From NCBI GenBank assembly GCA_963969365.1, contig OZ017763.1:682001-746000 (forward strand): a DNA stretch of 64,000 bases. Direction: 5' to 3'. Source of the DNA: Asterochloris sp. CNOR1. Lineage: Eukaryota > Chlorophyta > Trebouxiophyceae > Trebouxiales > Trebouxiaceae. Each line of letters opens with the position of its first letter. Position 1 is the first letter of the stretch. The notes under the pieces were generated by a model. That model saw nothing but the letters and a program-made list of their open reading frames with translations. It made no database searches and was not told the origin of the DNA. This document shows positions 2,169-63,512 of the stretch, piece after piece. Position numbers and translations under genes: made by a program.

Positions 2169-3400
2169 GCAGCTCAGCAGTAGGGCAAAAAGGGCAGGAG
2201 GTGTGCTTGTCTGTGCCTAAGAACCATCGCCAACTTCTGTGACATATCCCAGTGTGGGCCTGCCAGAAGCGCTGCATTGCAGAGGCATGCTCATCACGCT
2301 GGCTGTCATTGCTGCTGCTGGATGCAGGAAAATCCAAAGGGTTGCCAAAGGCCCCGCAAAAGAGGGTCAAGTGGGGTGGCCTTGAGCACATGTGTAGAGG
2401 CAGATGGGTTTGGTTGCTGCGCACAACTGCCGACATGCTGAAAGTGCCTACAGCATGAAGGTGCTGTCAGCATCATGGCAACAGAGCGGACAGTATACAC
2501 ATCTGTCCTGACAGCCCTGCACAGACTCTGTGACAGCTTCAAGCCAGGAGCGCTGCATGTCACTCAGCAATGTGTATAAGCCGAGGCTGGCTTGCATGAC
2601 AGACTCTTCCTGGAGCTCTCCACTACACTGTGCTGTTCATGTGGTGGCAGAGGCAGGTGCTTGAACACATTGCATGCCCAGCGCCCAGCCATAGAAAAAA
2701 AGTTATGACGCCTGCATCAGCCACCTGCAGCTCAGCAGTGTGAAGAGGCGGGACTGGTGCCACTTGCAAGCGAATGCCCTGCTGCAGCATCCCAGAGCAG
2801 CACTTCCAGCTGTGCAACAGTGCTGCCCTGAAGCATAATCAGCCCAGTGCCCAGTGCCTTGCTGGCTTGCAGGACCGCAGCACACGACCGTGCATTTAAT
2901 GCTGTTATTTACCTGCAGCACAAAATTCAACAGGTTGCCTGAGCAATGCTGGAGGGAGAAGCAGCCTCCTTTGCAGGGCGCCGAATAGTCTGCATTGGGC
3001 AATCTTGGCAGATGAAGGCTGACGCTCTATTGGTATGTGGATGCCCCGACAGACGCCTCTAGGAGCACCTGCAGTAGAGAGGTGAGACCACAAATCGGAG
3101 CATACGGAGGCATGAAGCACAGCTGTGCATGCTGCTGTGCTGGCTATAGCCACACCAGCTTACACCAACAATTTTGTGCCTCCTGGTGACGGGTGCAGCA
3201 GGCATGCGGCGGCTTGCTGGCAGGTTGATGCTTTTAACCGAAAAGGCATGTGCAGTGATGTGACTGCTTGCATGTGCCTGCCTTGCGGCCTGCCAAGTGT
3301 CTGTTACAAGCTTACCCAACCCCAAAAATGGATCATTTGTATGGCCCAGGCACTGCGTGAATAGCTTTGCTTGGTGAGACAGCCCTTGCGGGCTTCACAG
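2169..3400. other. Non-coding flank with one duplicated exon start
   Basis: No gene is recognised. A second, decayed copy of the Mpv17-like exon 1 start lies at about 2252-2290 (see repeat entry). Several minus-strand open frames (2703-3002, 3059-3325) have no recognisable motif. Confidence 0.35.
2252..2290 (-). repeat. Ghost copy of the Mpv17-like exon 1 start
   Basis: The motif read on the minus strand as CGCTTCTGGCAGGCC, preceded by a TGCAG, occurs both in exon 1 (about 2137-2160) and about 110 bp upstream here. The second copy encodes a similar QRFWQA peptide, but its frame does not continue into a family protein. Confidence 0.6.
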
Positions 3401-3401
3401 C

Positions 3402-4763: not shown

Positions 4764-6827
4764 GTCGGTCAGCGGGCCGGCCAAGCGCTACCGCCACACG
4801 GCCAGCGCGCGCAGCGCTGCACAGCAGCAGCAGGCCCAGCAGCCGCATGCTATCATACCCAACATTGTTGCCGTGTTGCACGGCCTGTTTCCAGAGATGG
4901 ATGACAAGGTGGGTCGCTGCAAGACCCTGAGCATCTTGCAGACCTGCATACCGGGCAGGCCTCACTTCAAGCTTAGACAAGCTGCTCCGAGGAGAAGGCA
5001 TTTTTACCCTTGGACAAGCCATGGCAGTGATGTGCATGACCATGGCCACCTGATGATGGGTGCAGCAATGGTGGCCTTGCTGTAACAGGCCGCCTTTGGG
5101 GTGTGGTGTTTTTGAGTTGTGCTGCTGAAACAGGAGTCCTCTCCTGATGCGCATGCTGACAAGCCAGTGCTCAGACGCAGCCACAGCTCTCACAGGCAAG
5201 CCCTTCTCTGACCTGGGGCTGACCTGGCTGCAGGTCATAGGAGACGTGCTTGACGAGTGCGGGTCCAACATCGATGCAGCCATCAAGCGCCTGGAGCAGC
5301 TGCGTCTCAGCGGCAACAATGCCCCAGAAGCAGCCCAAGACCCCACAGCAGCTGGAAGTGAAGGAGGTGTGCTGGGGTGGCTCATCGTTGTTCATCAGGC
5401 CACGTTATGGGCCCCACCTTTGTTTTGAGGGCACCAGGCTCGTGCCATCGTGCTGTGGACAAAAAGTCTTGTGGTGCTGCTCTGCTGAGCTGCGGCGGCT
5501 GTGGGGCAACTTACCTCAGTGAAACAGGATGCCCACCTCTGATCCTCTGCCCCACCTGCAGAAATAGTGACTCCATCGTGCACCTCCCCAAACTCCCACC
5601 TCAGCTGAACTTCCTGCTTGCTTGATGCGTCATGTCTCCAGCTTTAGTCGAAGCCCTTGCCCAGTTAGCAACTGTGAATTATGTGTCATGCCTGCAGCTT
5701 TAGCTGAAGCCCCTTGCCCAATTTGGCAACTCTAGTAGGTGTTGTGCCTGCAGCAGCCTCAGTGGCTACGCCCTCAAGCAGCCTGCTGAAGGAGGCGGGA
5801 CAGCAAGCCACGCAGCCAGGCAGACACCAGCAGCCCACCCCTGGTCCGCAGCAGGACGGGCGGCCCAAGAGCTCAGAGGAATGGGTCGAGGCTCTCGTGC
5901 AGCAGATGGCAGGGGCCAGCGACATCCAGGACGCCCGTGCGCGAGCTGCCCAAGTGCTGCACGCCTTCGAGCAGGCCCTGCTGGAGGGGGCAGGTGGACA
6001 GGTGGGGGCATGGGGGCATCACCTTTCCACAGCTGGGGTGGCTGTGGCGCCTGTGAATTAGCTCTTGTGCACATCTTCGGGGCACAGAGCCGTTCAAGTG
6101 CTGCTCGCTGGTGGGGAGGTCCTGCTGGGGAGCACAGGCATGCACTGCAGCCTTGACTGGATGGGCTTGTTGAGCCTGCTGGCAGAGCAAGCTTCTAGGT
6201 GGGTGCCAGGCCCAGGCACAGGTCGTTGACTGTTTCTGCAGGTTGAAACTGCTGCTCTTGGTTGTGCAGCTCTGACTTCCTTCACTTAGCCTGCACCCTA
6301 CTGCTGCAGGGGAGGCCAGGTGACACAGTGTGGGAGCTGCTGTACAACTCACTGCCTCCACAAGCCTGTCACTGCCTGCTGCAGGGCAACTCAGGCGGGG
6401 CAGTGAGGAAGCAGCTGCAGGACCTGCTGCAGCACTTGTGATGACCTTGCCTGGCTTGCCCTGCAACAGCAGCGTGAAGGTTGAGGGCAGGGCAGTGAAG
6501 ACACGGCCGGTGCTGACAATCACCCAATGCCGCATCCTGCAGACTTTGACCCTACTGCTGCAGGGCAGAGCTGGCGGTGCCGTGCAGAGGCAGCTGCAGG
6601 ATCTGCTCAAGGACAACCACATCCTGAAGCGTGCAGTAGCCATCCAGAACAATCGCATCCAGGAGGCCACTGCCAAGGAGGCCCAGCTCCAGCAGCTGCG
6701 CCAGCTGGTGTCCCAGTATGAGCAGAAAATCCACAGCCTGGAACTCAGCAACTACTCATTAGCCATGCACCTGCGCCAGGCCACTTCCACAATCTCTGGC
6801 TCCCAGCGCAGCCCTGATGTCTTTTGA
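4764..6827 (+). CDS. CUE-domain protein, plant type (5' end missing)
   Basis: Exons 4764-4908, 5234-5366, 5754-6001 and 6564-6827 join in phase. The first gives VLHGLFPEMDDK and the second VIGDVLDECGSNIDAAIKRL, together a CUE domain (ubiquitin binding). The third carries SSEEWVEALVQQMAGASD and an Ala/Arg-rich helix. The last is a coiled coil (QRQLQDLLKDNHILKRAV, then QLRQLVSQYEQKIHSLELSN) ending SPDVF-stop. The order and the PDVF terminus match the plant 'ubiquitin system component Cue' proteins I recall from Arabidopsis. The first coding exon, expected to end in phase 2 before 4764, was not found. Function is probably ubiquitin recognition; its partners are unknown. The intron before the last exon holds a decayed copy of that exon. 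Confidence 0.85.
5641..5753 (+). repeat. Tandem duplication of an intron 3' end
   Basis: Two units (5641-5696 and 5697-5753) both begin GCTTTAG, share CCTTGCCCA and GGCAACT-like blocks, and end CCTGCAG. Only the second abuts the exon at 5754, so the acceptor region itself was duplicated. Confidence 0.8.
6294..6440 (+). repeat. Two ghost acceptors, one with a ghost exon
   Basis: The true acceptor CTACTGCTGCAG|GGCAGAG at 6551-6570 has relatives at about 6299-6312 (CTACTGCTGCAGGGGAG) and 6375-6392 (TGCTGCAGGGCAACTC). The second copy keeps an open frame, GNSGGAVRKQLQDLLQHL then stop. It parallels the real exon start GRAGGAVQRQLQDLLKDN. Confidence 0.85.
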
Positions 6828-8731: not shown

Positions 8732-11700
8732 TCACAATCTCTGACCGATGCCAAGAGCTGCGACAAGCTTGTCAATGTCGGTGTGGTCGTTGTAGTAATG
8801 TACGCTGGCCCTCAAGAGCTCCTTGTGGGGCAGCTGCCGCGCATCAAAGTCCAGGCGGGTGCTGGACGCTGGGGAGATGTGGATGTTGATGCGCTGCGCC
8901 GTAAGCTGGCGCTTGACCTTGGCAGCATCCCTGCCTGCCTGCACACACATCTCTAAAAGTCAGAGGACAGGCTGGAAAGCCAGGCAGGCGTCCAGCTGCT
9001 AGCCTGCACCTGACAGCAAACGAGGATCTGTCAAAGACTTCAGGCATGGTAGGAGATTTCAAGCTTGTGGCCCACATGCCACCAGCTATCGCATCCAGTG
9101 CTAAAGGATCCTAACGCCCCGCACTGAGCAAGCACATGTGTGCCTGAGGGCCTGCTGGGAAAGCCAGGTTCAGAAAGGCCGCTCAGTGCTGCCTGACCCA
9201 CAAAGCGTCTCTGCCTGCCTGCACAAGCTAGGCTTTGTGCAGCGCATCTTGCTCTTTGTGTTAGAGGCTGTAAGTTACCGCCAAGACCTGAGCTGCTGAG
9301 CATCCAGATGACAGCACGAATATAGTTCAAGGGATCTGAGTGCTTGAGCAGGCAGCGCGTAAAGGTTGACATTCTTGCCCTACATTAGTCAGGCTGACTT
9401 TGTCTGCAAGAAGATTCTTCACACGCTGCATTTGCACCGCAGGTAGGCATGCCTAGTTAAGCGAGACGGAAGTGGGACACCAAGCACAGGCAAGCCAGCA
9501 AGGAGCTGACAAGCACACACCTGTACAAAGCTGACAATTCCACAGAGGCGCCGCCCTTTATCTGTGACAGTCACGCCGGGCACCTGCTGCAGGCTCTGTC
9601 TGAGGTAGGCTGCCAGCCCCTGCACCCGCTCCCATATTTGGTGCAAGCCCACACTCAAAGCGTACTCCACTGCAACACCAAACCCAGCCTGCACCCAGGG
9701 TGCCTTCAGCGCCGAGCTGCAGATCTGAGAAGCTGGGCTCTGCCTGCTTTTGCCAGCTAGCATCTGGGGCACATCTTCAGGTGCGCAGCCACAGCCTTCA
9801 GCGCAGAGAGAGTGATGATGGGGCCCTGCAGCATGCAGACCTTTGAGCTGCCACAAGGCCAGCATTGACACTCCAATGCAGTAAGCACGGCGTTGTCTTG
9901 GGCAACCAGGAAGCAAGCGTTTGTGGCTACAGTTGAGCCCCGGTTCTCGAGATTGCGGGCAAGTAATGCACTGCTGGCCTCGCTAACAACTGCAGTTGTG
10001 CTCCACATGACAGAGTCATCCTGGGCTTCCCACTAATGTGTCCTGCAAGCACTGCAGAGTAATGAAGCAAGTATGTCCGCAACTTTGGCAGACTTGAACC
10101 CTGTTCACAGCATGTCTCTGCCTCACCTCGGCATGTCTGCAACACTCCTCACCTTGGCGGCATAGGTGATCTCATACTGCTCGTAGCGCCTGGCTGTGGA
10201 CGCCAGCTCATACTGGTGGTTGTAGTGCCTGGTGCCCTGGCCGCTGCTATGCCAGGTCGCCCCCCAGATGTCAATCATTGCAGGCTCTGACAGCTCCATG
10301 CCCCGTCTGCATGAAGAGAGAGTTGCGCATCACGTGGCTGCTGTTGTGCCAGGCGCAATGCAAGCTCTGCCAGCGGCAGTCCCTGCCTGCACAGCTTAGG
10401 TTGTGCTCTATGTGTGGCTGCTGCCAAGCGCAATGTACACATCATCGCTAGTGTGACGCGACGGCCCCATGGTGTTGGTCATTGCATGTTCCACAAACTC
10501 CACAGTGCAGGAGCCACTACAAGCCCTGCTCTTGCTGCAATCCGTCAGTCATGTCAGGCTGTACACGCTCCATGCCTAGCTGGCAGCATGGGTTCATGGT
10601 ATCATGTCATGCATGATGTCTGGCATACTGCAGTCAATCCCAATGTTCTGACAGTTTGACAGTGCTGCCAGCAAGCTTTGTCCCAGCACTGCCACGGCCA
10701 GATATGCCTCTTTGCTGCCAGGCTGCACACCACGCTGAGGGAGGGGAAGCAGACCACGCGGCAAGTGTCCTCGCTGCCGCCTGCAGGGCTTGTCTCCATG
10801 GAGCTGAGCGCATGCCCAGCTGGTTCCCTGTGCCTACTGCCCATGCGTGGCTGCCAGCGCCGGTGAAATCACAGCGCTTTGGCTGGCTCTGCAGTGGCGG
10901 GCTTTAGGGCTTGCACACCCAACAGGACGCAACGTCCCTGAGCCCACATATGATGGGCTGCCCATCTACCTGGACGCGAAGAGGAAGCCCACTCCCCGCG
11001 GCCCTCTCAGGTACTTCCGGCTGGTCCCTGTCAGCCAGGTGCACCGCAGCTCCTGCACGTCCAGGGGCATCTGCCCCACGCTCTGACAGGCATCCAGCAG
11101 GTAGGGCACCCCATAGCGCTCTGCCAGGCGGCCTACTGCAGCTGCATCATAAATGCGGCCTGCAGGCAGGGCGCTTCTTGATGGACGCTGCAGTGCACCT
11201 GGGTCCCGCTTTTCCCACTGCTGCTATATTTCATGCAAGGCCTGCAGGCGCCTGCAGGAAGGGATGTTCACTGAGTGTGCTGCAGCGCACCTGGTAGCGC
11301 ACTGCCTAGTGGGCCACAGCCGCTGTATTATAGACGCAGCCCGCAGGCAGAGCACCCCGTACCAGGTGGCGCTCATCAAGCGGCCCGGACACACACTGCC
11401 TTGATTGACATAGCAGGTGGGGCACCAGGCAAAGCCCTGGCACTCGGCCCTTGACTGCTGCATCGTAAGCACAAGCTGCAGGCAGGTGTTGGTCTCAAGG
11501 GCGTGAGTGTGTCTGGGAGCAATGTGTGCGGTCCCTCACATGGCTACATTGCAGATGTTCTGGCCTGCAGGCATAGAGGCGCACCCCCTGTCTGCCAGCG
11601 AGTCAGGGGCTGCTGCCTTGTAGGCGCAGCCTGCAAGCAGAGCGTCATGTTCTGTGTGGCAGATCCAATGCTGGTGCTGGGGGTCGGTACATAGCAGGTA

Positions 11701-13604: not shown

Positions 13605-16600
13605 CTAAAGGCTCTGCCGCTGAGTCTCAGGGCTGACAGTGGCCTCAAGGTCACCCAAGCTCAGCACTGAAATGTAGCTATTCATCAAGGAGCCAAAGAC
13701 AAGGACGCCGTTGCTCTCTGTGACAGCTGAAATGGAACTGATGTGCCTGCCAGATGTGTCACTGTACAGAGCAATAGGCTTGCCATCTGAGGTCACCTGA
13801 AAGCAGTGCATGGGCATTCGTAGGGCATGGCAGTGAGATAGCAGAGCAGCTTGATGTCCTGGATGTCGCATTCAGGCTGACCTTTAACAGTAAGCCAACC
13901 TTAGCTGGCTTTGGTTTGAGTCGGTCTGGTAGGTACCCAATGACAAACCTCAGCCACCTACAGTGCAGTGCAATCAGTGCTGAGATAGCCTCTCCCATTG
14001 CCAAACCATGCTATATCTGCTGCTTGTGCCTCTGTTGCGTGAGACAGTACAGAGGGGCTGCAGGGTGGATCTGGCTGAAAGGGATGCCAGCAGCAGCCAT
14101 GCTGTTCCCAGACCTAAAGCCATTGGGGGGCCCCACTCAGCTGCACTGCTCTCTCACCTACAGCTAGTGCTCTAAAATACGCTATGCTGCTTGCTTGCCT
14201 CACCTGCTGGACAGCAGTTTCACCACGGGCACCGTTGGAGACGGCATCGACACCCAGAAGTTGCCATCAGAGGCCAGCGACACGCCATCTGGGAAGCCTG
14301 GCAAGCCCCTCAGCAGCACCTCAGTCTTCCCTGCCTGCACATGCGACATGCACTGCTGTCCTGTCAGCAGGAAGCGCCCACAAAACCTGGCCGGCCAGCG
14401 TGACGCCACGCAAGACATCAGCATCGAAGCTGCTGGCATGCCACTGACCTTGGGGCCCCTCAGCCAGTGCCTGTGGAGGGTCATGCTGCACGTCTCTGCT
14501 ACCACCAGGGAACCCCCGTCCTGTGACAGTGCCACGCCGTTGGAATACCACAGGCCCTGTGCCAGAACATTAGTTTCCCCGGTCTGTGGGCTGAACGCGA
14601 GAAGTCGACCTGTAGGGCTGCCCTGCAGGCACCATGTAGAAGTGTTTGTGATAGTGGTAAAGCTGAACTTCAGCAGGCAGCACTGACGTCCCTGTGGCAG
14701 TGGAGCTGCCCTCACTGCGCTAGCTTGGCATGGTGACATCTGCCTCAAGCTTCAGAGCCAGAGACAGTGTTGTTGCTTACCTGCAGCATGTAGCTGCCGC
14801 AGTGCATTTCACAGCAGCAGGCAGCTGCATGTCTTCAGTTGCAAAATGCCCTCGTATGGGCGAGTAAGCTGCCTCATCGCCACTAGCTCAGGTGTGGCAC
14901 AGCAGCGTGTGAGTCCATCACACGTGAAGTCCACAGAGCAACAGACCCTTTCACACGCACAAAACCCTCAGAATATCCAGCATGATCAGCAGACGTGCTG
15001 TTTCTTGAGAGCATGATCAGCTGTGCCATAGAGTCCCTGTTGCATGACCACCGTTGAGCGCCCCTGCAACAGGAGCGACACCACCCAACACCTTCAAACA
15101 GCCTGATATGCTGGCTGGCCTGCTGATGCCTCACCCCAGCTGCAAACTCGCCTGCAGTGTGGTCAGCCTGCACCTGCCACAGCACAGCAGGCGGCCTTTG
15201 TCTCAAGCTGCACCCAACGCACCCAATCTCATGGAGGCCTTCTATGCAATGCTGCCCGGCTTGCTTACAGCCGCCCAGCTTGCAGCCTTGTCAGCAAGCA
15301 ACTGCCACAATGCAGCAGCAGGCAGTTTGTCATGCCTGGAAGGTACAGCCACTATGCTTCCCTTTGTACCTGCAGCATTGTCAGGAAGTAGCTGTTGTAG
15401 GTGTCCCAGTAGCCCTGCTCATGGCGCTTGACGTGGATGGCACTGGAGTCTGTGAAATAGATGGTCCCGTCTGCTGCAATGGTGAGATCGTTTGCGTAGT
15501 TGATGAGCGTGGAAGGGGCCAGCGGGGATGTGCTGCTCACACGGCTGGTCAGCAGAGTGACCTGCTGGCTGTCAGCATTCCATTTGACCAGGCCCTGCAT
15601 GCACACGTGGCGCTCAGGTGCTGCTTGGGTGGACGGGTGCTGAGCTGGCACCACCTCCTGCATGAACAGACATGTTTGATGGGCCATGAAGGGACCAGCA
15701 GGGAGCTGCTGCTCACGTGACGGGTCAGCTGAGGGGCTCAGTGGCAGGGCCATCCATGCAGGGGACTCACCTGCAGGCTGTTGCAGATGGTAAGCTGCAT
15801 TAACATATTGTGCGTTGCGCATGGCGCGCCGCAGGGGCTGCATCTACACACCACATCAATCTCCTGCTGCACTGCCTCACCTGCAGACTGTTGCAGATGA
15901 TGAGATCCCCCTGAGCATCAAAGTGGTGTCCCAGGGGGCGGCCAGGACCCAGGTAAGCCAGGGCTCGCAGCTCGCCAAACCCGGCGCTGCTGCCAGCTGT
16001 GCTGTTATGAGCAGGCTGTGCTTGCCAGAGCGTGTTGAATTTGTCCAGCATGTAAAGACTGCCATCCTTGCCCACCTGCACGCTCTCTGCACAGGCAACA
16101 GCATGTGGGCTATGAAATGCTCCTCAGAGGACTGTGTGATTGATGCGATTGCTGTGCAAGTTGCCGGCCATCCAGGACACTTTCTGCACAGGCAGGTAGT
16201 GGGCCTTTTAAACTGCACTGCAGCAAGAGAGTGCTGTGCTTTGCAGACTGCCATCCCCTGTCTCCTAAGGACTCCAAGGAGGAAAGCACATGCAACTGTG
16301 TGTCATGCAGTGCAGGCTGCTCAGGGTCCCCAAGCTGGCCACACAGCGCCTGGGCTGACGTTTCAGTGCAGGGGCCTGTGCCCGCCAGCATCGTGCACAG
16401 AGCCAAGAAGTTGCTGGCAAGACAGGCGCTTGGCCCTCTTCTGCATTAGCAGCACGTGATGCTGGAAGCTGCTGCTGGAAGCTGCTGACCTGAGCCAAGC
16501 ACCTGGTGTTCAAAGAGGCGTGTCACCTTGTGCAGCCTCTCAATGGGCTGGTACTGCCCCTGCAGGCACAGACATTGCATGTTGGTCAGGGTGCCCAGCA

Positions 16601-19751: not shown

Positions 19752-22700
19752 ATGCCTTCCAACAAGCTGACGCCTAAGTTGGTTCAGGAGCTGTACCCTG
19801 AGCAGGTTCCAGCAGATGTAGAGAAGCTGATTGTCAACAGCAAGGGGCTGCAGAAGGTCTGCAGTGCTGTTCTGAGGGGGGCTCAAAGCCACTCCCAGCT
19901 TTGATGTGATGCTCAGTACGGAGGTCTTCCTTGCTGTAGATTGTCAGGCTGAGCGCCTGCTCGAGTCTCAAGCGTCTGGATGTGAGCAACAACTCCCTGA
20001 CCAGCCTGGAGGGCCTGCATGAGAGCAGGACGCTCAAGTGGGTGTCAGCCGCCAACAACCAAGTCACCAGCCTGCGGGGCGTGGAGGGGCTCACACAGCT
20101 GCAGGCAAGGTCAATGGCTTCCAGTCCTGGCTGGATTGAGCACATAGAGGCCGCACATCAATTACAGAGCTGTGTTGAAATGACTGTGCATAGCATCCAG
20201 CGTCAAGCAGCCTGGGCTGTGGGGAGGCAGGACCTTTCAAGGGCGGGGATGCAGGCGCCTTCGGTGCTGCAGGAGGTTGCTGTCAGAGATGCTTATGCAG
20301 CATAGCCCACAGTCAGCCTCTGTGACGCTTCTGCTGGGTTCCCCTCACTGGACCCATTTGCTTCTGCCTGCAGGTGCTGAACCTGTCGCACAACAAGTTG
20401 AATGGTGTGGTAACAATCACTGAGCTTCCAGCGCTGCGGGCGCTGATTCTCAATGACAATCAGATCGAGTCGGTTCAGGGTGAGACTGCCACGCATAGAC
20501 TGGTGCACCAGTCCTGCACTGCGCTGACCACAGCTGGCTGCGCCAGTAGAGAGCACTGGGCATGGCGCCTCAGGGGTGGCACCAGGCCCTGCCTTTATAC
20601 AGCAGGAATCCATGCAGACAGCATGGCATTTGAGCCCCTGTCAGATCACTGACATGTCTGCAGCTTCAGCCGTTCCAGACAAGGCTTGTCACCCTGCTTC
20701 CCATTCAACCCTCGCTTGCTTCATATGCAGGTCTGAGGGAGCTCCCAGACCTGAACACGGTCATTCTGAAGAGCAACCTGATCACAGAGCTACAGGGCAT
20801 CATCCGTGGGTGCACCCGCCTAGAGAAGCTGTCAATGGCCCACAATGAGATCACTGAACTTGGGGACGAGCTGGTGAGCTTGCCATAAGGGCAGCAAGCA
20901 TGCCTCAAAGCTGATGAGCAGGCAGGGTGATGACCTTGTGAGCACCATACAACCCTCAGGCCTGCAGCTGCTGGCTGCACCTGTTCAAACAAAGCTTCTT
21001 GGCCCACCATGAGATCAGCGATCTTTCCCTGAGGGACACGTCAGTGAGCTTGCCCTGGGGTCAGCAAGCTTGCCTTGACCCGCTCAGTGACTGCAATGGT
21101 ATTGCAAGGCTGCCCTTGGCCCAAACGCATATGGCCCACCTGGCCTGATGAACACAACTTTTTGGCCCAAGCAAACCCATCAGGCTGGGTGGTAATGTGG
21201 TGAAGACATGCAGAAGCCTCAGCCCTGCAGCATGGGCGTCCAAGCAGCGTGCACCTTCCTCTGCAGAGCCCCTCTGGAGCCCCTGCAGACTGGCTTGTCA
21301 ATGTTCTGTTGCTCCCTGCTGCAGGCCGACTGTAGCAGCCTGGCCGAGCTGCGGGTGGGGCACAATGAGCTGGAAGGGCTGCCCCAGGAGCTGAGCAGCA
21401 ACACCCGCCTGAGGATGCTGGACGCTGGCGCCAACAGAATGTCCAGTGAAACTGCTGTCATGGTGAGCAGGACAATGTGGGAGCTCTGATTGGGCAAAGT
21501 GTGTGCTGTGATGATCTTGAGAGCAGTACGCGGAGCGCATCAGGAATTCAATATATTCAGAAGGGCTCTGCATGGGGCAGACCCTGCTTCGTACAGGTGA
21601 GATGCTGAGGCTTGCAGGTGCTTCAACATGTGCCTCTGCTGTGCCAGCTTCTGCTTTGCTTCTCAGGTCCTGTATGAGCTGTCATGGTTGCACCACCTGT
21701 CAGCTGCAGGGCTGCAGCAGCTGCAGCACCTGCTGGAGCACCTGCACGTCACCAGCTTATGCTGCAGAGCAGCCTGTCGACGCGTAGCCTGGCTACTCCT
21801 ACTAGCTGCTCAAAACAGGCCAGCCTCTGTCTCAGCAAGAGCAATCCCTGCTGGCAGCTGCAGGGCGGCAGCAGCTTCCACAATAGACTGGGTGTCAGAG
21901 TCTGAGAGGTGCAGTGGTGTGCAGGTGCTGAAGCAGCTGCCTCTGTTAAGGCAGCTCACGCTACAGGGCAACCCTGTCACCCAACAGCCTGGCTACCCGC
22001 ATCAGCTGCTGACCACTCTGCCTCAGCTGGCCATTCTTGACACCAAGAAGGTCAAGATGCTGCTAGACGTTGCCAGCAACATCAGTTCAGGCAAGGCAGC
22101 GGAGGGGTTGCCCGGAAGCGGTGCCAAGCTCAAGGCTGGCATAGCTGAGGAGGGCGAGGCACATGCCCATTCAGCACCAAAGGCCAAGAAGAGGAAGCGC
22201 GCTGAGCAGGGCCCCAGCAGGGACTCTGGCGGGGAGCACCCTGCTACTGTTGCGGCAGAGCAGGCCAAAAGCCTGATCCCTGGCAGGCAGCAGCCCTCTG
22301 CTGCAGGAGGTGAGCGGCAGGGGAAGCGGAAAGGCAAGCAGCATGCGCTGAATGCGGGAAGCGGTGCTCCTGTGGGCATGTCAAGAAAAGCAGGCGCTGC
22401 TGCAAAAGCTGGCCCTGCTGAGACAGACATGCCTAGCAACTCAGCTGGCAGAGAACCTGGACCCAGCAGCGCCACAGAAGCCAGCAGGAGGGCAAAGGCA
22501 AAGTCTGAGCAGCAGCCAGAGGCTGTAAGTGAGCTACCAAAGCCTGCCAAGGCAAAGCACAAGAAGAAGGATGCTGGCAGCAAGGAGAAAGCGTCGGCAG
22601 CCATGCGCCAGTCCCTTACCAGTCATCCCGGTAACCCACCTGGGGTACAGCCCAGCAAGCCCAACAGAAGACAGGCTGGCAACGGTGGCTCTGACAAGAC

Positions 22701-30862: not shown

Positions 30863-30926
30863 GCAAGCCTTTGATTGTTTGCTGATCTGCATTCACAATT
30901 GCTACCGCCATCTACCTGCACAGGTC

Positions 30927-31015
30927 ACATTTCTGTGTTGAAAGTCATATTTTACTGAGTGGTATAACATTTTACTCGTAAAGTGACATTTCACTCCACA
31001 AAATCACATGTCATC
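30927..31015. repeat. Cluster of short ACATTTTACT-like repeats
   Basis: Degenerate units follow one another: TCACATTTCTGTG, TCATATTTTACTGAGTG, TAACATTTTACTCGTAAAG, TGACATTTCACTC and TCACATGTCAT. Spacing is about 19-22 bp. They are much more AT-rich than the surrounding sequence. Confidence 0.7.
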
Positions 31016-31018
31016 TTG

Positions 31019-31044
31019 GGGGGCAAGCCTGCAGGCTTGCCCCC
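31019..31044. other. Perfect 26-bp palindrome
   Basis: The sequence is GGGGGCAAGCC-TGCA-GGCTTGCCCCC, with 11-bp arms around a self-complementary TGCA. It could extrude a GC-rich hairpin. It lies about 380 bp past the stop of the Rep-like gene. A terminal hairpin of an HUH-type element would be expected near such a 3' end; that role is inference. Confidence 0.95.
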
Positions 31045-31051
31045 TGACAGA

Positions 31052-32598: not shown

Positions 32599-32640
32599 CT
32601 GCTCTAAGAAAGCAGCCAGCTCTGTCTGCCTCACAGGCTA

Positions 32641-33200: not shown

Positions 33201-33232
33201 TGCCCATATAACAAGTCACATCCTCTGCTCAC

Positions 33233-33860: not shown

Positions 33861-36800
33861 ATGAGTGCCTATGCTGCCCCTGGCGGCTATGGGGATCCTG
33901 TGCCCGAGCATGTTCAACAATTCGTGGTATACCTGTACAGACACATCAGGCAAGGGCACCAGAGGGCAGGGAGCTGTCAAAGACTGCAATGTCATTCTGC
34001 TGCGCACTGGCAATCTGATGTATGTGCAGCATAAGCCTGTTGCAAACAGGTCTTTGTGTAAATGGGAGTGCAATCTTCCCTCCGCGTCTCTGTTCAGCTT
34101 GCAGCTGCAGCTCTCCAACACAGCGGCTATCACCTGCCTTGCATAGCTTCTGCAGGGAGCGCAACATCCGTGAGGTGTTCTCCATGTACGAGGTGACCTT
34201 TGCCAAGCTGAGCGAGCGCTTCTTCAAGGGCAGCACCTGGCCCCCAGTGGAGATGGTGGCTGACCTGGTGGACAAGGACCATGTGTTCTGCCTGCTCTAC
34301 AAGGTGAGGTTGTGGCCATGCTGTCATTGCTGGCCAGATGCACTTCTGCTGCCAGTGACAGGGTGGGCAGTGCGTCAGGGCAGCCCTTGTCAGTCTAGTT
34401 CCCAACATGAACTTAGGAAGATAGGCCATGCCTCGACCTTTTGCAGGGGCTGCACTGAAGCAGAGACGGCCAGATCTCTTCAACAGGTGGCCTTTACTGG
34501 GGGCCTTGCTTCTGAGCCCCAAGAGATGCCTTCCCTGTGGGCGCACAGATAGATCATGGCAGTGCGCTCAGAGATGGTGGCAGACCTGGTGGATCAGGAC
34601 CACCATACGCTGCCTCCTTTCAAGTGTATCTGCCGGTGCCCTACAGCAGGTTGTGCTTGCTTCATATAGAGTCTCGGCGCATCACAAGCTGGCCCTGCAG
34701 GTCAACCTCCCACCCCATTGGCTCCCTGCACCACCCAGCACACAGGCATGACTTCAGGCCGGCCAACTAAGGCCAACGTGGATTCTGGTGCCCTGCAGGA
34801 GGTATCCTTGAATTGGGAGGTGCCCTGCGGGAGGTATCCTACCACTGGCAGTGCACATACATACATGTAGCTTGACCTTAATTGCTGAAGGCTGCATCTC
34901 CCTGGCCTGCAGGAAATTACCTTCAGGCACCTGTATGCCACGCAGCAGCCCAGTTTGGAGCAGAGACGGGCCTCCTGGGAGAACTATGTCGCCCTCTTCA
35001 AGGTCATCCTGGAGAGCAAAGTCAACATGCAGGTGAGGCTGCATGCAGCCAGTCCTGTTTGCGTGTGCAAGCCCGGGTGGGGGACGCGGACAGCTTGGCC
35101 TCTCTTGAAACCAGCCAGGGAAGCAAGTCGGTATGCAGCTCACCCATGCTGCTGACTGCGGCCAGTGCTGTGCACAGCCACGTTAATAGCTGCGGCAAAA
35201 TGTGCCATGGTCTTCGGACGGCCATTATGTTGGCTTGACAGACTCTTGCCTGCCCTTCAGCTCCCCAATGGATGGCTCTGGGACATGATCGACGAGTTCA
35301 TCTACCAGGCAAGCACTTGCTGATTGTGCCTGCTTTGGCTTGTGCTGGCCTGCCTGCTTTTGTACATCATCTGTGACCCACTGCAAGCTGAGGAGGTGTG
35401 CCATCCAGGGCTTAGCTACCAGACTGGGCTGAGCTGCTGCGCTCTGCATGGCAAGTCTGCACACAGCCATGGCTGGTACTGTCCTGGTGCCATCATGTCA
35501 CTGGCAGCGACAGACATGCTCTTGCATCAGGCATGCACAGCATGCTACCACAGAAACAACAAAGGGTGAGGCAGCTAGCAATGGGTTGTAAGTTGCGCAC
35601 CAGCTGCTTACACTACTCCTGGCAGGCCAGTCTGGACCTGTCAACCTGAGTCCGCCTGCTGCTGCCACTGCTGCCACTGCTGCAGCATCTGTCGCTCTTC
35701 CTGGTGAGACGGTGCCTGGGCACTGCTGCTCTGACATGTTGTCACACCAGCTTACTCTGAGATTTTGTGTGTGCCACTGCTGCAGTTCCAGTCCTTTTCC
35801 CAGTACCGAGGCAAGATGGCACACAAAACAGCCCATGAGGTCGAGCTGCTGAGAGACTGCGTGGGGGTGTGGGACGTCAATACAGTGCTGCAGATTCTGC
35901 AGTCGCTCATCGACAAGTCCCAAGTGGCGCAGAAGTTGGGGAATGAGGGTGAGCAGTCTGTCTTATAGGCCCCAGTCATGTCAGGCTGAATGTGTGGGCT
36001 ATGACTGCGACCTTGGGCTCGTAGCTGCCTGCGTAAGATCCCAGAATCCCTCTCTGTGCTGGGGGTGAATCTTCCATCTCCTCACACAGCTTCTTCTGCT
36101 GTGACAACTGATGGTATTGAGCCAGCAACTCGTCCTGTATCAGCTTGTCTGTGCTACAGCAGCTGCTTCAGGCTATGACTTGACTTTGTGTAAGGGGGCC
36201 CTGGGAACTAAGCAGCCGCACAAGCCCATGATCATCCCATCAAACTGCCTGACCTCTTACCCATGGTGCCCTGCCTGCTTCCCGCTATCTGTTCTGGTTG
36301 AATAGCGCGAAGAGGCTGAGTCATGCCCAGCGCTGCACTGCAAAGACTAATGAGTACAAGGCTAAGAGCAGCCCCAAGCTACGCATACATTGCGGCTTGC
36401 CCCGCTCTGCAGACACACTAGCTAGCCTGAAAAAACACTTATTCCTCGTTCAAGTCTCTATCCTGTGTATGACAACCAATCTGTCTGCGCTGCAGATGCC
36501 CAGCGACGCTTCGCGGAGACTGAGGGTTACGAGGCCCAGAGCAGCAACGTGCTGCGCACGCTGGGCTACTTCTCCCTCATTGGCCTGCTCAGGATGCACA
36601 CCCTGCTGGGCGACTATGAGGCAGCCCTCAAGGCCTTGTCACCCATCCACCCCTTCCGCAATGCCCACTCGCTGACCAGCAGCATTGCAGGTGGGGTGCT
36701 GGCTGATAGCCGATTGCTGTACAACATGGCAGCTGAGGTCCAGCCTTGGACTGTTGGCTGGCCCTGGCAGTTCAATCTTGGCCCGACAGTGTTTCACTGC

Positions 36801-39800
36801 CCAGCAGCATGGCAGGTGGGCTGCTGGCTGGTTGCTGCTGGCTGGTTGCTGCTGGCTGGTGGCTGATTGCTGTGCAAATGGGGTGCAGTATGGGGCCACC
36901 CAGCCCTCCTGCATGTTCGGCCCACAATATAACAGGCTGATAGCGGGACCTTGTGCCAATTGCAATTGGCGGCAGGCAGCGTGTGCAGGTAGGCTTGCTT
37001 TCATGACTGCATTGCCCTGCCCTTCTGTCCTGGCTGGGCGCCATGACTGGGCACAGTCTCACATATCAGACCAAGTTGCTGAGCCTGGTGCACCATTGCA
37101 TTGCTGTGCACTTCCACCATGCACATCCTCATCAAGTCCTTCTCCTGTGTGCTGCAGGGTGCCACATCACTCTGTACTACTACGCCGGGTTCAGCTACCT
37201 CATGGTGCGGCGCTGGCTGGACGCCGCCCGGGCCTTCAACATCGTGCTGTCCTACATTGCCAGGTGACCATTGACTGAAGATTGAGCTTTGGGTGCCCTT
37301 GGAGACAAAAGCATGCCCTGCCAGAACAGGGCAGGTGCCTTGAGACATTACCTGAGTTGTACAGGTTCACCCTGCTTTGTGCGCTGTGTGTTGTTCCCAG
37401 GTGAGTGCAGGAGGCGATTTCTGCATGCGCTGTGTCCTGTGCTTTGCATTTGTTGGAAGGGCACGGCCTGACAGAGACACTGTTTGCATGAAGTTTGGTT
37501 GCCACCATGGTGCTACGCCAGACTGTCAAGCCCACTGTCCACAGGTCTCCTGATGTTGTGAACACTGAAGGGTCAGAGAGCTCTGCAGAATGCACTGTTC
37601 TTCTTGCGTCGCTGCAGAGAGCAGCAACACCTTTCCTGCAGCTCCCAGTCCAGTTGCAGAGTGCCAGGGAGCATGATTCTTTGCCACCGCTCTTCTGTCC
37701 CCTGCCTGTAGGATGGATCGGCACCACCTCTGCAGCTCCCAGTACAATCACAAACTTCCACAGCCAGCTTCATGAGCCTGCTCCCCTCTGTTCCTTGCCG
37801 TGAGTGCTTGTCTCTTCCCTGCCTGCAGGGTGAAGCAGCACCTCTCCCACAGCCAGCCTTGCAAGTTTGTCACTGGATGCAGCATTCTGACCTCACAGTG
37901 CCTCTGCAGGAGCAAGCACTAGCTGACCCCTGGATTGTAAAAATGTCTCACCACACGTTGTATGTCTCAGTCTTCATCAGCTCCTTTCTGTACCTGCAGG
38001 TGAAGCAGCCTCCTGCAGCCTGCAGTATAGATCACCCCTGCAGCTCCCAGTGTAGACGACAAACTTCCTGCCTTTGCATAATCAAGGCCCTCCAAGCCCC
38101 GCTCGATTGAGCTCAACACCTCCACCACACAGCTGCCTCTGCCACATCTGTCCCTGCATGCAGCGTTCCAGGTCTTGCCGTAAGCCTAGACTGTAACGTC
38201 TATGGACTGAGGAATGTGGTCCAGGTTCTTGGTGGTCCTGCGCCTGCAGGGTGAAGCAGTACCACTCCCGGAGCTCGCAGTATGACCAAATACTGAAGAA
38301 GAATGAGCAGATGCATGCGCTGACGGCCATCACTCTGGCCATGTGCCCCGCCGCGGAGCAGCTTCTGGAGGAGGGAGTGAGCAACCTGCTGAAGGAGAAG
38401 TGAGTCCTTTGAGCCCGTTGCGTGGCTGGCCTGCTGCAGAGCCTTCAGGAAAGTGAGGGGTGCTGAGGGGTGCTTGGCCAGCGCACAAGGTGACGCGAGT
38501 GCTGGTTCTCGCCTCTTGACAGGACCTTGCAGAGTCCCAGAGATGAGCTTCTGGTGGGGAAATCCTGACAACCTGCTCAAGGTGAACTCAGCACTTGCAT
38601 GAGAAGTGTGCACATGCTTGTGCCACACACATGTCTGGCAGCGCCTGGGCACAGGGGTGCTCATCGTCAGCTGAGTCCCCGTCAGCTGCATGGCATACCT
38701 GATGCAGCCCCTGCTGCAGACCCTTCAGGAGGCGACTGGTTGCCTCCCAGCTGGTTGAGGCCAAGCAAGTGCTGCTACGATGCCCGCTGATCCCTGCAGC
38801 ATACAAGGCCTGCTGGTCGCCCAGACATAACCTTCTAATTCACAGTCCAGCAACTACGCAAGGAGCAAGCAGACACTCACCGAGGGACACACTCTGCTGC
38901 AATGATGCACTGCACAGCCGCCAGTCCTACACAGGCTTCCATTGCATCAGCAGCTATGCCAGTCAGCCTGCTGCTGGGCTGTCTCGCATGCAGCACTGCC
39001 CCTCTGTCAGCTGCAGCTTCTGTTGACGGCAAGGCTGACCCAGTCCCCACAGTCTGTCTCATGGTGAACGCTGCCTTCTGACAGCCCGGCTGGTGTGCAG
39101 GTATAGGGTCGACAGTCAGCGTGTCCTGCAGCAGCTCCTGTGTCACCATGCATGCCGCCATCTGACAGCCCGGCCTGGCTGCAGGTATGGCGACAAGATC
39201 CAGCGCATGCACCGCGGGGAGCAGGGCACCTTTGAGGAGCTGTTCACCTACTCCTGCCCCAAGTTCGTGACGGCTGCGCCCCACAGCCTGGACGCCCCTG
39301 CGGTGACCACATGCTTCTGTTGGCATGCTGAGAGGCAGCGTAGCGTCCCATGCTGTTCACCTGCCACTGCCCCTATCTCTTAACCACTGCCGCTCCCAGC
39401 CTGGATGTCCCTGCTGTGATGGCCTGCTGCCTTTCCTAGCTGCCTGTGACTACAGGTGGGCTTCACCCTGATGCCTCTTAATATGGACAAGGCGCGGCGT
39501 CTGTCGACAGCCATGGACCCAACTAGCCGTGGACCCAATCTCAAATTCAGCCCCTACTGCTGCAGGTCAACACCAACCAGGAGGCCTACCGCCAGCAGCT
39601 GCGCATCTTCCTGGCGTTCGTGGACCAGACGCGGCACCTCCCTGCGCTGAAGCAGTTCCTGAAGCTCTACACCAGCATCTCGCTGACCAAGCTGGCTGGG
39701 CTGATGGACATGGACAGCGACAACCTGTCTGGGCAGCTACAAGTGCTCAAAGTGGGTTAGGGCTTAGTCAAGGACTTGCCATTCTGATATGGACCTTTGC

Positions 39801-40403
39801 TGGACCTCAACTTGAGCCTGTGGGGCTCTGCTGCTTCCGCTGGGTGGGCAAGATGCTTAGGGCTGACTCAGCTGGATGTATGGACCCTGACAGTCTTCTG
39901 AGCAGCTGCAAGTAATTGTTGTTGGTCTTAAGAGATCCTGAAGGGAGGTGGAGGCACCTTGCTTTTGTGCACACTTCATTCACTACCTTTGCAAGTTTGC
40001 AAGCTGCAACACTCCATCAGCTAGGATCTGGCTTTCCCAGTCCCTCACATGTCCAAGGCTCTGCAGCAACCCAAGATCTCCTTCAAGCCTCTGAAAGCAC
40101 AGGGCTGAGCAGACACATGCAAGAGAAAGCACTCCATGCCTGCAGAGCACCAGCGCCTGCAAGACTTGGGACGGCAGAGGAGATGCACTCGATGGCACCC
40201 TACAATCCTGTGCAGACGTGGAGTTCAAGTTGACTACGGATGCCAATGGGAAGGATGTCATCAGCATGCTGCCTGTGAAGGCACCGCGCAACAGGAACAC
40301 CGAGTTCCTGATAAAGCACATTGCCAAGTTCCAAAAAATTGTGCAGGACTTCTCTGACATGGCGCCCGCTGGCGCTGCACCCCCCAAGGTGGCTGCTTAC
40401 TAA
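33861..40403 (+). CDS. EIF3L: Translation initiation factor eIF3 subunit L
   Basis: Eleven exons (33861-33949, 34147-34303, 34913-35032, 35261-35308, 35786-35948, 36496-36690, 37158-37263, 38250-38399, 39185-39302, 39566-39751, 40146-40403) keep phase and give 529 residues, normal for eIF3L. Diagnostic stretches are [89 protein letters not shown] and [20 protein letters not shown]. The protein is a PCI-domain subunit of the cytoplasmic eIF3 complex that binds 40S ribosomes. Introns 1 and 4 have GC donors (CATCAG|GCAAGG and TACCAG|GCAAGC). Many introns carry ghost junctions, the longest set in intron 7. It is a housekeeping gene and marks the right border of the accessory block. Confidence 0.96.
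34545..34850 (+). repeat. Ghost exon 2 end and ghost exon 3 acceptors in eIF3L intron 2
   Basis: Exon 2 text GAGATGGTGGCTGACCTGGT (34250-34269) recurs at about 34572-34591 as GAGATGGTGGCAGACCTGGT and drifts after GACCACCA. Before exon 3 (CCTGCAG|GAAATTACCTT), two relics read CCTGCAGGAGGTATCCTTGA (34793) and CCTGCGGGAGGTATCCTA (34826). Confidence 0.85.
36679..36862 (+). repeat. Ghost donor plus 14-bp microsatellite in eIF3L intron 6
   Basis: Exon 6 end AGCAGCATTGCAGGTGGGGT (36679-36698) recurs at 36803-36822 as AGCAGCATGGCAGGTGGGCT. It is followed at once by three 14-bp units of CTGCTGGCTGGTTG (36821-36862). Confidence 0.85.
37610..38290 (+). repeat. Five-member acceptor array in eIF3L intron 7
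   Basis: The real exon 8 starts CCTGCAG|GGTGAAGCAGTACC at 38250. Relics precede it at about 37611 (GCTGCAGAGAGCAGCAACACC), 37706 (CCTGTAGGATGGATCGGCACC), 37824 (CCTGCAGGGTGAAGCAGCACC) and 37995 (CCTGCAGGTGAAGCAGCC). Several keep the downstream CTCCCAGT block that matches the exon's GCTCGCAGTATG. Confidence 0.9.
39072..39420 (+). repeat. Ghost acceptor and ghost donor around eIF3L exon 9
   Basis: CTTCTGACAGCCCGGCTGGT followed by GTGCAGGTATAG at about 39074-39105 mirrors the real CATCTGACAGCCCGGCCTGG followed by CTGCAGGTATGG at 39159-39190. After exon 9 (CCACAGCCTGGACGCCCCTG at 39281-39300, donor GTGACC), a copy CCCAGCCTGGATGTCCCTGC leading to TGTGATGG lies near 39397-39420. Confidence 0.85.
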
Positions 40404-50600: not shown

Positions 50601-52351
50601 TATTCCTGCAGTCTGCCAGAGTGCATAGCAAGCTATGGGCACGTCCACAAGGAGAGCACCAGTCTGTGACAGACATGTCAGCAGCAGTTTTGATCCAGCT
50701 TGTCTGTGTCCTCCTGACAGCACAGCATTCCAGCCCAGCAAGCAGACTACAGATTCACCCTTAGCAGCATTTCCATGCCGCTCACACCAGCCATGCTTAC
50801 CCTGCAGCATTGATGTGCAGGCATGCAAGCAGCCAACCCTGCCCTGCAGCCCCAGACTCATGCGGGCACTGATCAAGATGGTGGGAGGAGTCCCCAGATG
50901 CGGGTGCTCAACTATCTCTGCAAGCAAGCAACTTGTTGGCTTCTGCATTTGCTCACACCACCCTCACCAGCCACCCGTGCCCTGCAGCCCCCGATACAGG
51001 CAGAGCTGCTGAAGAATTTCTCCCGGTGATTTTCTTTTGAACACATCTGCCATTGGTTCACGCTGCTCACACCAGCCACCGCTGCACTGCAGCCTCAGAC
51101 GCGGGCAGAGATGCTGGACAGACTTAGTGAGCAGGAGCTTGCAGGCTTCGCAGCCGATGTGCTGAGTGCCCGCTACGTGGACACAGCTGGGGCACGACAT
51201 GAGATCCCACCTCCAGACATTGATGGCGCCCTGCAGGACCCTCTAGGTTAGTCTGCCTGTACACGATTGGTGAGCTCCTGGCCTTTCGGCAAGGATTGCA
51301 GGCAGGTCTTTGTTTCTGTGTTGGGTGGGGCCATGTACTTGCCGAGCAACTGCTGTGACATGACTGGTGCGACCTGCTGTGCCGCTTAAGGTGCAAAGCA
51401 TCTGCAATGTCACGCCCCTTTTTATTGGTGCTGCTGCAGAGGGGCATGTTGCTGGAAACAAATTTGCAGCTTCCTGTGCTGCTGAATGTACCAGAGCTGC
51501 TCTACTGTTCCTCTTGGGCATGTCAAGCCACTGTCCTGCACTCCCTGCCAGCGTTCCGTGCTGGAGCGCCTGAGCTCTAGAATAAGAAGGGGTTAAGGGG
51601 TGCTGCAACTGGCTCTGCAACTGGCTCTGCGCTAATGACGGTGCTCAGTCTCTCTGATGCCCCTGGCTGGCCCTGCGTGCTGGGAAAGATCAATATGTAA
51701 GAGCTCATCTGGCCTGAGAACCCAGTGCTGCTTGTGCCAACCCTTCTGCCCCTGCAGCTCCCAACCAGCTGTCCATGTTGGAGCGTTTAAATTTTGAGGA
51801 TGAGCAAGAGGGCAGCTTTGCCGCCTTCTGCGAGGCCTACATGGGGACTCCTGTGCAGCATGCCATGATGGTGCAGGCGGACTGTGCAGGGTTCACTCTG
51901 CTGGGGCAGAGCTGGTCGATGGAAGGTTAGCAACTTCATGAAGCTGGGGGCGTTAGTCGAGCATTTCAGTGTTGGAGGGCACACTTTGCCACAGACTGTG
52001 TTTGTGTCTGTGTGTGTCCAAGATGGCTGCCATTTGTTGACGGCATCGACTGGGACTTGGCAGCTGCACTGCTCCCAAGCCGATGCTTTGCCTGCTTGAG
52101 CAGCATCAGCTCGGCATGAATCCAGGCTGTCGTCCATGAGTGGCTAAGGTGTGCTCATTCACCTGTGCTATACTGGTCTCATCGCGGCTGGAGTGCAGGC
52201 TGTCGCCTGATGCACTGCTGTTCCTGCTGCAGTTGCTTCAGCATGGCGTGAGTTTAGATTGTCGTTCATGAGGGAGGTCAAGGATGAAGCTGGCCTGAGA
52301 GCTATCCTGCACCAGATGCGAGAGGAGGTGGCAAGCACAGCAGAACACTAG
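47677..52351 (+). CDS. Unknown multi-exon protein, 3' half resolved
   Basis: Firm exons are 50127-50285 (VTFATERAHKALPPADRKVR), 51093-51246 (RAEMLDRLSEQELAGFAADV), 51758-51925 (PNQLSMLERLNFEDEQEGSF, then FCEAYMGTPVQHAMM) and 52233-52351 (ASAWREFRLSFMREVKDEAG, stop TAG). The last three join in phase. Likely earlier exons are 47677-47827 (HRALATDQPSGDIPVSKAEE), about 47891-48080 (NWRLQLSTIVPDARKADA, YLACRGSDLIILLDTDQQRH) and about 49252-49341 (SILAVYQVASRAPPRASLLV). I do not recognise the family. The helical, charged C-terminus suggests a soluble protein. It may be two genes. The ATG at 47588 is a possible start, but its link to 47677 is unproven. Confidence 0.45.
50770..51120 (+). repeat. Three-unit tandem array of an acceptor and exon start
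   Basis: Real exon start TGCAG|CCTCAGACGCGGGCAGAGAT (51093) is preceded by relics at 50850 (CCCCAGACTCATGCGGGCAC) and 50988 (CCCCCGATACAGGCAGAGCT). All three units share an upstream GCTCACACCA block and CCTGCAG or ACTGCAG. Unit spacing is about 105-138 bp. Confidence 0.9.
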
Positions 52352-61900: not shown

Positions 61901-63512
61901 AGTGCGTGGCAAGCTGCACTGCAGCTGCAGCTCCTGCATCCCCGATACATGCTGGTGTTGTCAAAGGGTTCAAGGAAAACTGGCTGGGTCCGCGACTGGC
62001 TGGGAAATTACAGACCTGGGAGCGAATCACAACACAGAGTCCAGGGTCCCGTCAATGGTCTGCAGATGCACACATCTCTCTTGGTCTGGCCTCTGGTGCC
62101 TGCAGGGCACTTGGCATGCTGCGTAAGTGGCATGGATGAACCTCTCATGACATTATCCCTGGTATCACCTTAGCCAGTGCCCCCCCTGGTCCCGCAGGGG
62201 AGTTGCCATGCTGCGCAAGTGGCTGGATGGGCCTGGTGGCGGCGGCCCCACCTACTACGGCCCAGGCAGGCCAGGGGCAGGGCAGATGAGGGATGCACTC
62301 GGTCATCTGGACAGGCGCCTCATGCTGGACAGGACGGACCATACTCAGAACTGTTCTGCCTGCCGCCAGGTGAGCACCACACTGCTCAGCGACTTGGGGA
62401 GGCACTTGATGCTGGACAAGCGCTTGAACACGCAGGACTATCAGCTGCCGCCAGGTGGGCGCTGTTGTGGCTTGGTTGTCTGCAGCAAGTGTAGTGGACA
62501 TGCAGCGTTGCACAGCTTGGCAACTGGTGGTCAGTGCAGGCCAGTCTTGATCTTCGCCACTTGGCATGCGACTGATGCTGCACAGGCGGGCCCATACCCA
62601 GAGTACGGTGCAGCCTGCCGTCAGGTGGGCGCTGTCTTGGGTTGGTAGTTTGGGGCAGGTGCAGCAGCTGCACAGCTCGAAGGCCTCTTCATATTGCCAG
62701 ACCACTCACCCTGTGAGTCGCCAGGTAGGTAGGAAGGCAAGCAATCATTACGGACGTGTTGCTCTGCCAGGCATAGTGTGATGGGATAAGGCCCTGCGCT
62801 TTCAATCAGGGTTGCACAAGGCAAGTGGTTGCTTGTTCATGTTCTCAGCTGGGCTGCTGATCAGCACAACAACAGCTACACAGCATTGTTGTCAGATAAC
62901 TAGGTCCTCGATACAGGCAATTCAGGGAAGTCTCATGTTCAGAGCTGTGCAGATTGCTGCCAGGGGACCAATGCTCCCGCAGACCTGCTTTGTGGACTGC
63001 CTCTCCCACCTTCAGCTCTCTGGAATCACCTGTGCCCTGGCAGGTGATCAGCAGGAAGGTCAGGTTGCTCCCAGAGAGTCAGGTTGCGCAGCACAGGCTC
63101 CATCAAGTGCTGTCCTGCCGACCAACCTCACCTCTGTTTCTGAGGTAGTCTGTGACTCCAGCAAGTACGAGCCATTCTAGGTCAGCTCCAACATGCTCCA
63201 CCATCCCCCATCTGCTATTGCGAGCTCAATGATCCCAGGATTCCAGCATGTAGTCTGTCCCCTGCAGACTTGCAATCCTCTGCGCTGCAGGCTGAGAGGA
63301 CGCTTCAGACCCTGAAGAGCCTTGGGGAGGCCACCTGTCTGGCAGCATTGCTGGGGACCTTTGCCACCCTCGGGCAGGGTAAAGGACTCTTGGACCCAGC
63401 TCCGTTGGCGCTGCTGGCCCTGGCTGTGGGAGCAGAGCTGGCTGCCCAGAAGTGCGTTGTGCTCAAGCAGCAGTTTGAGTTCACCGACTGGCACCACCAT
63501 GAGCAGAACTGA
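55957..63512 (+). CDS. PAO/PTC52-like Rieske non-heme iron oxygenase (5' end missing)
   Basis: Exons 55957-56065, 56451-56550, 56898-56967, 57563-57627, 57862-57905, 58123-58209, 58550-58646, 58988-59027, 59151-59178, 59369-59430, 60159-about 60280, 61054-61174, 61491-61528, 61789-61894, 62198-62369 and 63291-63512 join in phase, except one unresolved piece between 60280 and 61054. Rieske ligands appear in ECRC-free text as FQDLCPHR and LECAYHGWQFGPDG. The mononuclear iron motif is ENMTDQSHTNYAHH. The start of the oxygenase reads FDWAKQWYPLASTYDLDPER. Late motifs are GDIVFMHRQ, SKHYYMPAQSDRGVAMLRKW, GGGGPTYYG and the CxxC in TQNCSACRQ. Two C-terminal membrane helices follow (LAALLGTFATLG, APLALLALAVGAELAA). 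This marks the chloroplast PAO/PTC52/TIC55 group. Chlorophyll breakdown or protochlorophyllide oxidation is possible; which one is not decided. The transit peptide exon was not found. Stop TGA. Confidence 0.87.
58755..58795 (+). repeat. Ghost donor in the Rieske gene
   Basis: Exon end GGAGGAGCTTGCAC|GTGAGT (58633-58652) recurs as CAAGGAGCTTGCACATGAGC at about 58773-58792. The preceding text AGCCC-TTTCT versus AGCCCCATCTT also matches. Confidence 0.8.
62370..62640 (+). repeat. Two ghost copies of the CxxC exon end
   Basis: The exon end CGCCTCATGCTGGACAGGAC, leading to CTGCCTGCCGCCAG|GTGAGC (62315-62375), recurs twice. Copy A at about 62398-62457 has GGCACTTGATGCTGGACAAG and CAGCTGCCGCCAGGTGGGC. 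Copy B at about 62568-62630 has GCGACTGATGCTGCACAGGC and CAGCCTGCCGTCAGGTGGGC. Both have lost the Cys codons of CSAC. Confidence 0.9.

What the first reader, a model, noticed from the sequence alone, without database searches (positions are those of the whole stretch)
2252..62640. Introns across the window are built from decayed tandem copies of their own splice junctions
In at least ten genes an intron contains repeated, drifting copies of the adjoining acceptor plus exon start, or exon end plus donor. Cases: Mpv17-like, CUE, aminotransferase, APMAP-like, C1-FDX, LRR, Rep-like, eIF3L, methyltransferase, FdC2, an unknown gene and the Rieske gene. Copies differ in age within one array. Tandem duplication of AGGT-bearing segments is a proposed way of making introns; here it looks like an ongoing way of enlarging them, at a density I have not seen described.
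Basis: partly seen in the sequence, partly recalled or inferred. Interest (0 to 1): 0.85.

Follow-up and report, generated by a model that had tools for sequence, protein, structure and literature searches.

The report
Decayed splice-junction copies inside algal introns
Introns of this lichen alga hold many worn-down local copies of the exon edges beside them, left by small tandem duplications that splicing can apparently ignore; the copies are real, but they are one part of a general, mostly old local duplication process rather than something special to splice junctions.

Summary
The genome is Asterochloris (eIF3L matches the JGI Astpho2 protein). Wrong-side matches are fewer (1 and 2), reverse-complement ones 0-2.

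In eIF3L 8 of 10 introns carry a copy at p<0.03; in 30 other supported introns 3 do at p<0.01, so the showcase genes overstate the average. Pair density in the window is near that of the other loci.

The copies look dead: mismatches are even over codon positions, 20/22 have a frameshift or stop. They include both sides of the junction and mostly keep AG or GT.

Not supported: junctions as a special source (intron interiors hold copies about as often) and a steady ongoing rate (2/134 pairs >=90% identical, 17.7% expected), though young cases exist. Proposed mechanism: small tandem duplication, tolerated in introns and across junctions.

The parts
38225..38309 (+). eIF3L: genuine acceptor and start of exon 8 (38250), the parent of the array in intron 7
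   Evidence: exon boundary from the hand model, recovered with the Myrmecia protein
37597..37649 (+). ghost 1 of eIF3L acceptor + exon 8 start, 40/53 identical
   Evidence: none of 1000 null targets as high
37697..37756 (+). ghost 2, 41/60 identical, acceptor reads CTGTAG
   Evidence: none of 1000 null targets as high
37821..37853 (+). ghost 3, 29/33 identical, acceptor CTGCAG intact; the JGI protein P0001 carries this copy as coding sequence (37829-37897, read by eye)
37988..38034 (+). ghost 4, 39/46 identical with gaps
   Evidence: none of 1000 null targets as high
34571..34624 (+). ghost of eIF3L exon 2 end (34250-34303) in intron 2
   Evidence: p=0.00025
36323..36385 (+). ghost of eIF3L exon 6 start (36496-36558) in intron 5
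   Evidence: p=0.00025; pair
38546..38586 (+). ghost of eIF3L exon 8 end in intron 8
   Evidence: p=0.00025
39352..39414 (+). ghost of eIF3L exon 9 end in intron 9; the longer pair reaches 39428
   Evidence: p=0.00025; pair
39862..39913 (+). ghost of eIF3L exon 10 end in intron 10
   Evidence: p=0.00025
6376..6435 (+). CUE gene: ghost of acceptor + exon start at 6555-6614
   Evidence: score 34; p=0.001
20992..21075 (+). LRR gene: ghost of exon end + donor at 20826-20905
   Evidence: score 36; p=0.001
11284..11353 (-). aminotransferase gene: ghost of acceptor + exon start (partner 11103-11172)
   Evidence: score 33; p=0.001
15766..15835 (-). APMAP-like gene: ghost of exon end + donor (partner 15876-15946)
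   Evidence: score 27; intron 15658-15880 p=0.001
15677..15757 (-). APMAP-like gene: intronic copy of exon-internal sequence 15501-15583
   Evidence: score 33
32632..33206 (-). Rep-like gene: multi-copy decayed array in the intron region
   Evidence: introns 32571-32828 and 32890-33232 p=0.001
50942..51018 (+). unknown gene: ghost of acceptor + exon start (predicted exon 51093; partner 51046-51125)
   Evidence: score 37; p=0.001
62395..62460 (+). Rieske gene: ghost of exon end + donor (donor at 62370), 51/63 identical
62560..62630 (+). Rieske gene: second ghost of the same exon end + donor, 54/69 identical
2253..2290 (-). Mpv17-like gene: copy of acceptor + exon start 2132-2170, itself called an exon by the gene finder; not significant in the per-gene test
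   Evidence: score 24

Best explanation
Small direct tandem duplications (88 of 134 catalogued pairs at offsets of 60-200 bp) arise more or less at random in this genome. Those inside exons are mostly removed by selection. Those inside introns, or across an exon-intron junction, are tolerated: the gene keeps splicing at the copy that is part of a complete exon, and the other copy becomes part of the intron. The exon copy is then kept by selection while the intronic copy collects substitutions, indels and further duplications. Repeated events lengthen introns and leave arrays of ghost acceptors or donors. Shown: direct orientation, locality, expected side, both sides of the junction included, neutral-looking decay, depletion within exons, head-to-tail structure in the youngest pairs. 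Inferred: the duplication chemistry (for example fill-in and end joining at staggered breaks), and that exon definition (ghosts lack the partner splice site across the exon) is why intact decoy sites are ignored.
For: Direct but not inverted excess. Side-specific copies. eIF3L 8/10 introns at p<0.03 with exon-only queries. Exon-side and intron-side match rates equal, 0.80/0.82 for acceptors and 0.80/0.79 for donors. In 22 copies of score >=18: codon-position mismatch rates 0.206/0.204/0.219, 66/71 indels not multiples of three, 20 with frameshift or stop. 134 pairs against 8 in block-shuffled sequence; exon-exon 7 v 16.4 expected. Young junction-spanning examples: biotin carboxylase L023 (295 bp unit, 93%), L010 (119 bp, 88%), L005 (65 bp, 87%). 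In L023 Pfam Biotin_carb_N aligns colinearly (109 v 109 positions) when the upstream copy is left out and breaks into two stretches when it is kept.
Against: Only 8 of 25 pairs with >=80% identity fill >=95% of their offset, while simulated tandem duplications have a 5th percentile of 0.81: many better-preserved pairs are short blocks spaced apart, which needs later insertions or deletions or another origin. Acceptors exceed intron interior slightly and labelled intergenic DNA has fewer copies than introns (both p=0.02), which a uniform process does not predict. Exon starts also match the downstream intron somewhat too often (at >=16, 6/285 v 0.7), a side the simple model does not favour. Interior copies are rare in introns of 700 nt and more. 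No RNA evidence was available.
Confidence: 0.8

Rival explanations
1. Splice junctions are themselves the preferred source or target of duplication (for example through AGGT or CTGCAG-GT microhomology or transcription-coupled breaks), so introns grow chiefly from junction copies.
For: Acceptor windows 29/277 v intron interior 53/870 (p=0.02); exon-intron pairs 56 v 42.3 expected (P=0.006); of the five highest-identity pairs that fill >=95% of their offset (L015, L023, L010, L005, L021) four cross a predicted exon-intron boundary.
Against: Donor windows equal intron interior (17/277 v 53/870); intron-intron pairs (65) are at expectation (60.1) and are the largest class; purifying selection on the exon copy should make junction copies easier to recognise (inference).
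Confidence: 0.15
2. The copies are functional alternative or mutually exclusive exons.
For: The JGI eIF3L model P0001 includes one copy in frame (23 aa); ghost splice dinucleotides are largely intact (26/37 and 14/18).
Against: No codon-position bias, frameshifts or stops in 20/22 copies; the relatives P0002 and P0004 lack the eIF3L extra segment; Pfam colinearity in biotin carboxylase excludes the copy.
Confidence: 0.04
3. The copies mark introns newly created by tandem duplication of AGGT-bearing exon segments (Rogers model).
For: One candidate: L015 545-744, three copies of a 68-bp unit (96% identity) with AG|GT at the unit end, whose removal restores the frame; in 4 of the 6 homologue alignments that cover the site the reading is continuous there, though these may be translations of genomic ORFs.
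Against: No general signature: exon end v intron 3' end >=14 in 3/250 (null 0.7), exon start v intron 5' start 1/250 (null 0.8); ghosts lie mainly on the enlargement side.
Confidence: 0.05
4. Chance similarity from biased composition (CTGCAG-rich sequence, repeated splice motifs).
For: Acceptors are near-uniform (CTGCAG 154 of 290); weak-score excess is as large in intergenic DNA.
Against: Matched nulls use the same class of site from other loci (donor 0.25%, acceptor 0.32% at >=20) and inverted controls give 0.4% for both, against 6.1% and 10.5% observed.
Confidence: 0.02

Closest known systems
[quoted passage not shown] review PMC3443670 and potato RdRp case PMC4974935, passages seen of both)
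   Same: tandem duplication of a segment bearing exon and splice-site sequence; the potato paper also mentions an 83-bp tandem duplication inside an existing intron
   Different: here the copies lie within existing introns as enlargement and decay; no creation signature in bulk
Tandem exon duplication, including intronic and inter-boundary exon copies (PMC9013439: passages and results section; Exonize PMC12343006: passages and the short results section, table not held)
   Same: exon copies in neighbouring introns, some degenerate, some spanning the exon-intron boundary
   Different: here partial copies near junctions, mostly dead, in short introns; PMC9013439 gives about 2% human, 0.08% fly, 0.06% worm exonic bases with a >=80% copy, and mine is 2.35% direct v 0.87% reverse-complement control of 63918 bases by a different method, so not strictly comparable
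Small tandem duplications from end joining at staggered breaks (PMC8355091: start of abstract and passages; it cites Vaughn and Bennetzen 2014 for rice, not read)
   Same: short head-to-tail direct duplications
   Different: mechanism not tested here; the youngest junction-spanning units are 65-295 bp
Introner elements (PMC9860276, two passages seen)
   Same: a source of intron sequence found mainly in fast-evolving lineages such as green algae
   Different: random cross-locus comparisons are at a low null level, so no sign of dispersed families; the whole-genome search did not complete

Membership tests
Small tandem duplication | direct orientation only | tested here: met
   at >=20 inverted copies 0.4-0.5% v direct 6.1-10.5% at junctions and intron interior
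Small tandem duplication | copies adjacent head to tail | tested here: inconclusive
   met in young pairs L015, L023, L010, L005; only 8 of 25 pairs >=80% identical fill >=95% of their offset
Small tandem duplication | breakpoint microhomology typical of the repair route | not tested
   breakpoints of old copies are lost; the few young ones were not examined for it
AGGT tandem-duplication intron gain | intron 3' end resembles upstream exon end, or intron 5' start resembles downstream exon start | tested here: not met
   3/250 v 0.7 and 1/250 v 0.8 at >=14; one candidate in L015
Alternative or mutually exclusive exons | reading frame kept, mismatches biased to third positions | tested here: not met
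   22 copies
Alternative or mutually exclusive exons | copies present in transcripts | not testable with these tools
   no RNA-seq at hand; one JGI model includes a copy
Introner elements | near-identical intron sequences dispersed through the genome | tested here: inconclusive
   random cross-locus comparisons at 0.1-0.4%, no all-against-all; whole-genome search unanswered

The most novel reading that the evidence does not exclude
In Asterochloris a large part of intron length is the sum of small tandem duplications, many across splice junctions, made tolerable by exon definition: intact ghost acceptors and donors with near-parental context are passed over because they lack a partner across the exon. 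Introns in such a lineage grow by copying their own borders, with an old peak of activity and a continuing trickle.
Probability: 0.3. Interest if true: 0.7.

Novelty: new variant of a known kind. Interest (0 to 1): 0.5.

Why it matters
Where intron length comes from in genomes with few transposons is poorly known. Here part of the source can be read from the sequence and ranked by identity. The ghosts are natural near-duplicates of splice sites that are presumably not used, which makes splice-site choice (exon against intron definition) testable in one genome. They also mislead annotation: a public eIF3L model carries a ghost as coding sequence, and my own gene finder called ghosts exons in the Mpv17-like and biotin carboxylase genes.

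Tried and rejected
A stricter exon filter kept 144 introns and gave the same picture with less power. Self-BLASTN listed no pair of score >=26 with an offset under 80, apparently because such pairs lie inside the self-hit, and was replaced by banded alignment. A flank-extension test showed no further similarity beyond the aligned blocks, but the ends of local alignments are non-matching by construction, so I give it no weight. An Rfam scan of the window and six loci found nothing. Ghosts as pure composition artefacts were rejected by matched nulls and inverted controls. E. coli K-12 as an intron-free control shows almost no local excess (>=18: 0.37%, >=20: none of 816). The intron v intergenic contrast is weak evidence because the gene finder labels only 9% of the sample intergenic while the genome paper states about 26%.

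Filters to bear in mind: 290 of 758 predicted introns kept (exons >=30 nt, coding score >2, length 80-3000), 285 usable per test; windows without 500 nt flanks dropped; codon test on eIF3L and complete predicted genes only; window per-gene test ignored predicted exons <25 nt.

Full report
What the sequence is. The window is G000:C18:682001-746000 of a 56.4 Mb, 21-contig genome. A hand model of eIF3L from window exons is identical to EukProt jgi/Astpho2/8661 over the exons both share (2, 3, 5-10 and the end of 11; the JGI model lacks exon 1 and replaces exon 4). The genome is therefore Asterochloris, a Trebouxiophyceae alga. I take it to be the lichen photobiont A. glomerata, whose published genome is 56 Mb with 9 introns per gene on average, mean gene 4240 and mRNA 1400 bases (PMC6652019, passages seen), hence introns of about 315 bases.

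Gene structures. No annotation was at hand. I trained a small coding and splice-site HMM on eIF3L and then on its own predictions. It returns 11 of 11 eIF3L exons exactly, but eIF3L was also its seed, and it predicts 19 exons there, eight too many. An independent spliced alignment of the Myrmecia protein gives the hand-model boundaries from the first donor (33949) to the start of the last exon (40146), with errors at both gene ends. Pfam matches of nearly equal length in protein and profile support the UTP11, HAD, SDR and ABC-transporter predictions used later, and Pfam confirms CUE, LRR, methyltransferase, Mpv17, aminotransferase, Fer2 and Rieske names in the window; the Rep-like protein has no Pfam match.
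Noticed in passing
whole sample; eIF3L donors at 33950 and 35309: GC-AG introns look unusually frequent: 43 of 290 predicted and 7 of 40 homology-supported introns begin with GC.
   Followed up: partly
whole sample: Acceptors are nearly uniform: CTGCAG at 154 of 290 predicted introns.
   Followed up: partly
window 28823-40403: The public Astpho2 eIF3L model P0001 begins with sequence of the upstream predicted gene (window 28823-29561) and includes a ghost copy as coding sequence.
   Followed up: partly
L015 545-744: Three 68-bp copies (96% identity) ending in AG|GT: a possible newborn intron in an ATPase-like gene family.
   Followed up: partly
whole sample: Labelled intergenic DNA holds fewer local copies than introns (7/274 v 53/870), although both should tolerate duplication.
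   Followed up: no
window 55677-55843: An 84-bp unit repeated twice at 89% in the unknown gene; the intron 55655-55815 there gives an acceptor match of score 44.
   Followed up: partly
predicted introns of 700 nt and more: Interior local copies are rare in the longest introns (1 of 106 windows), so something else may fill them.
   Followed up: no
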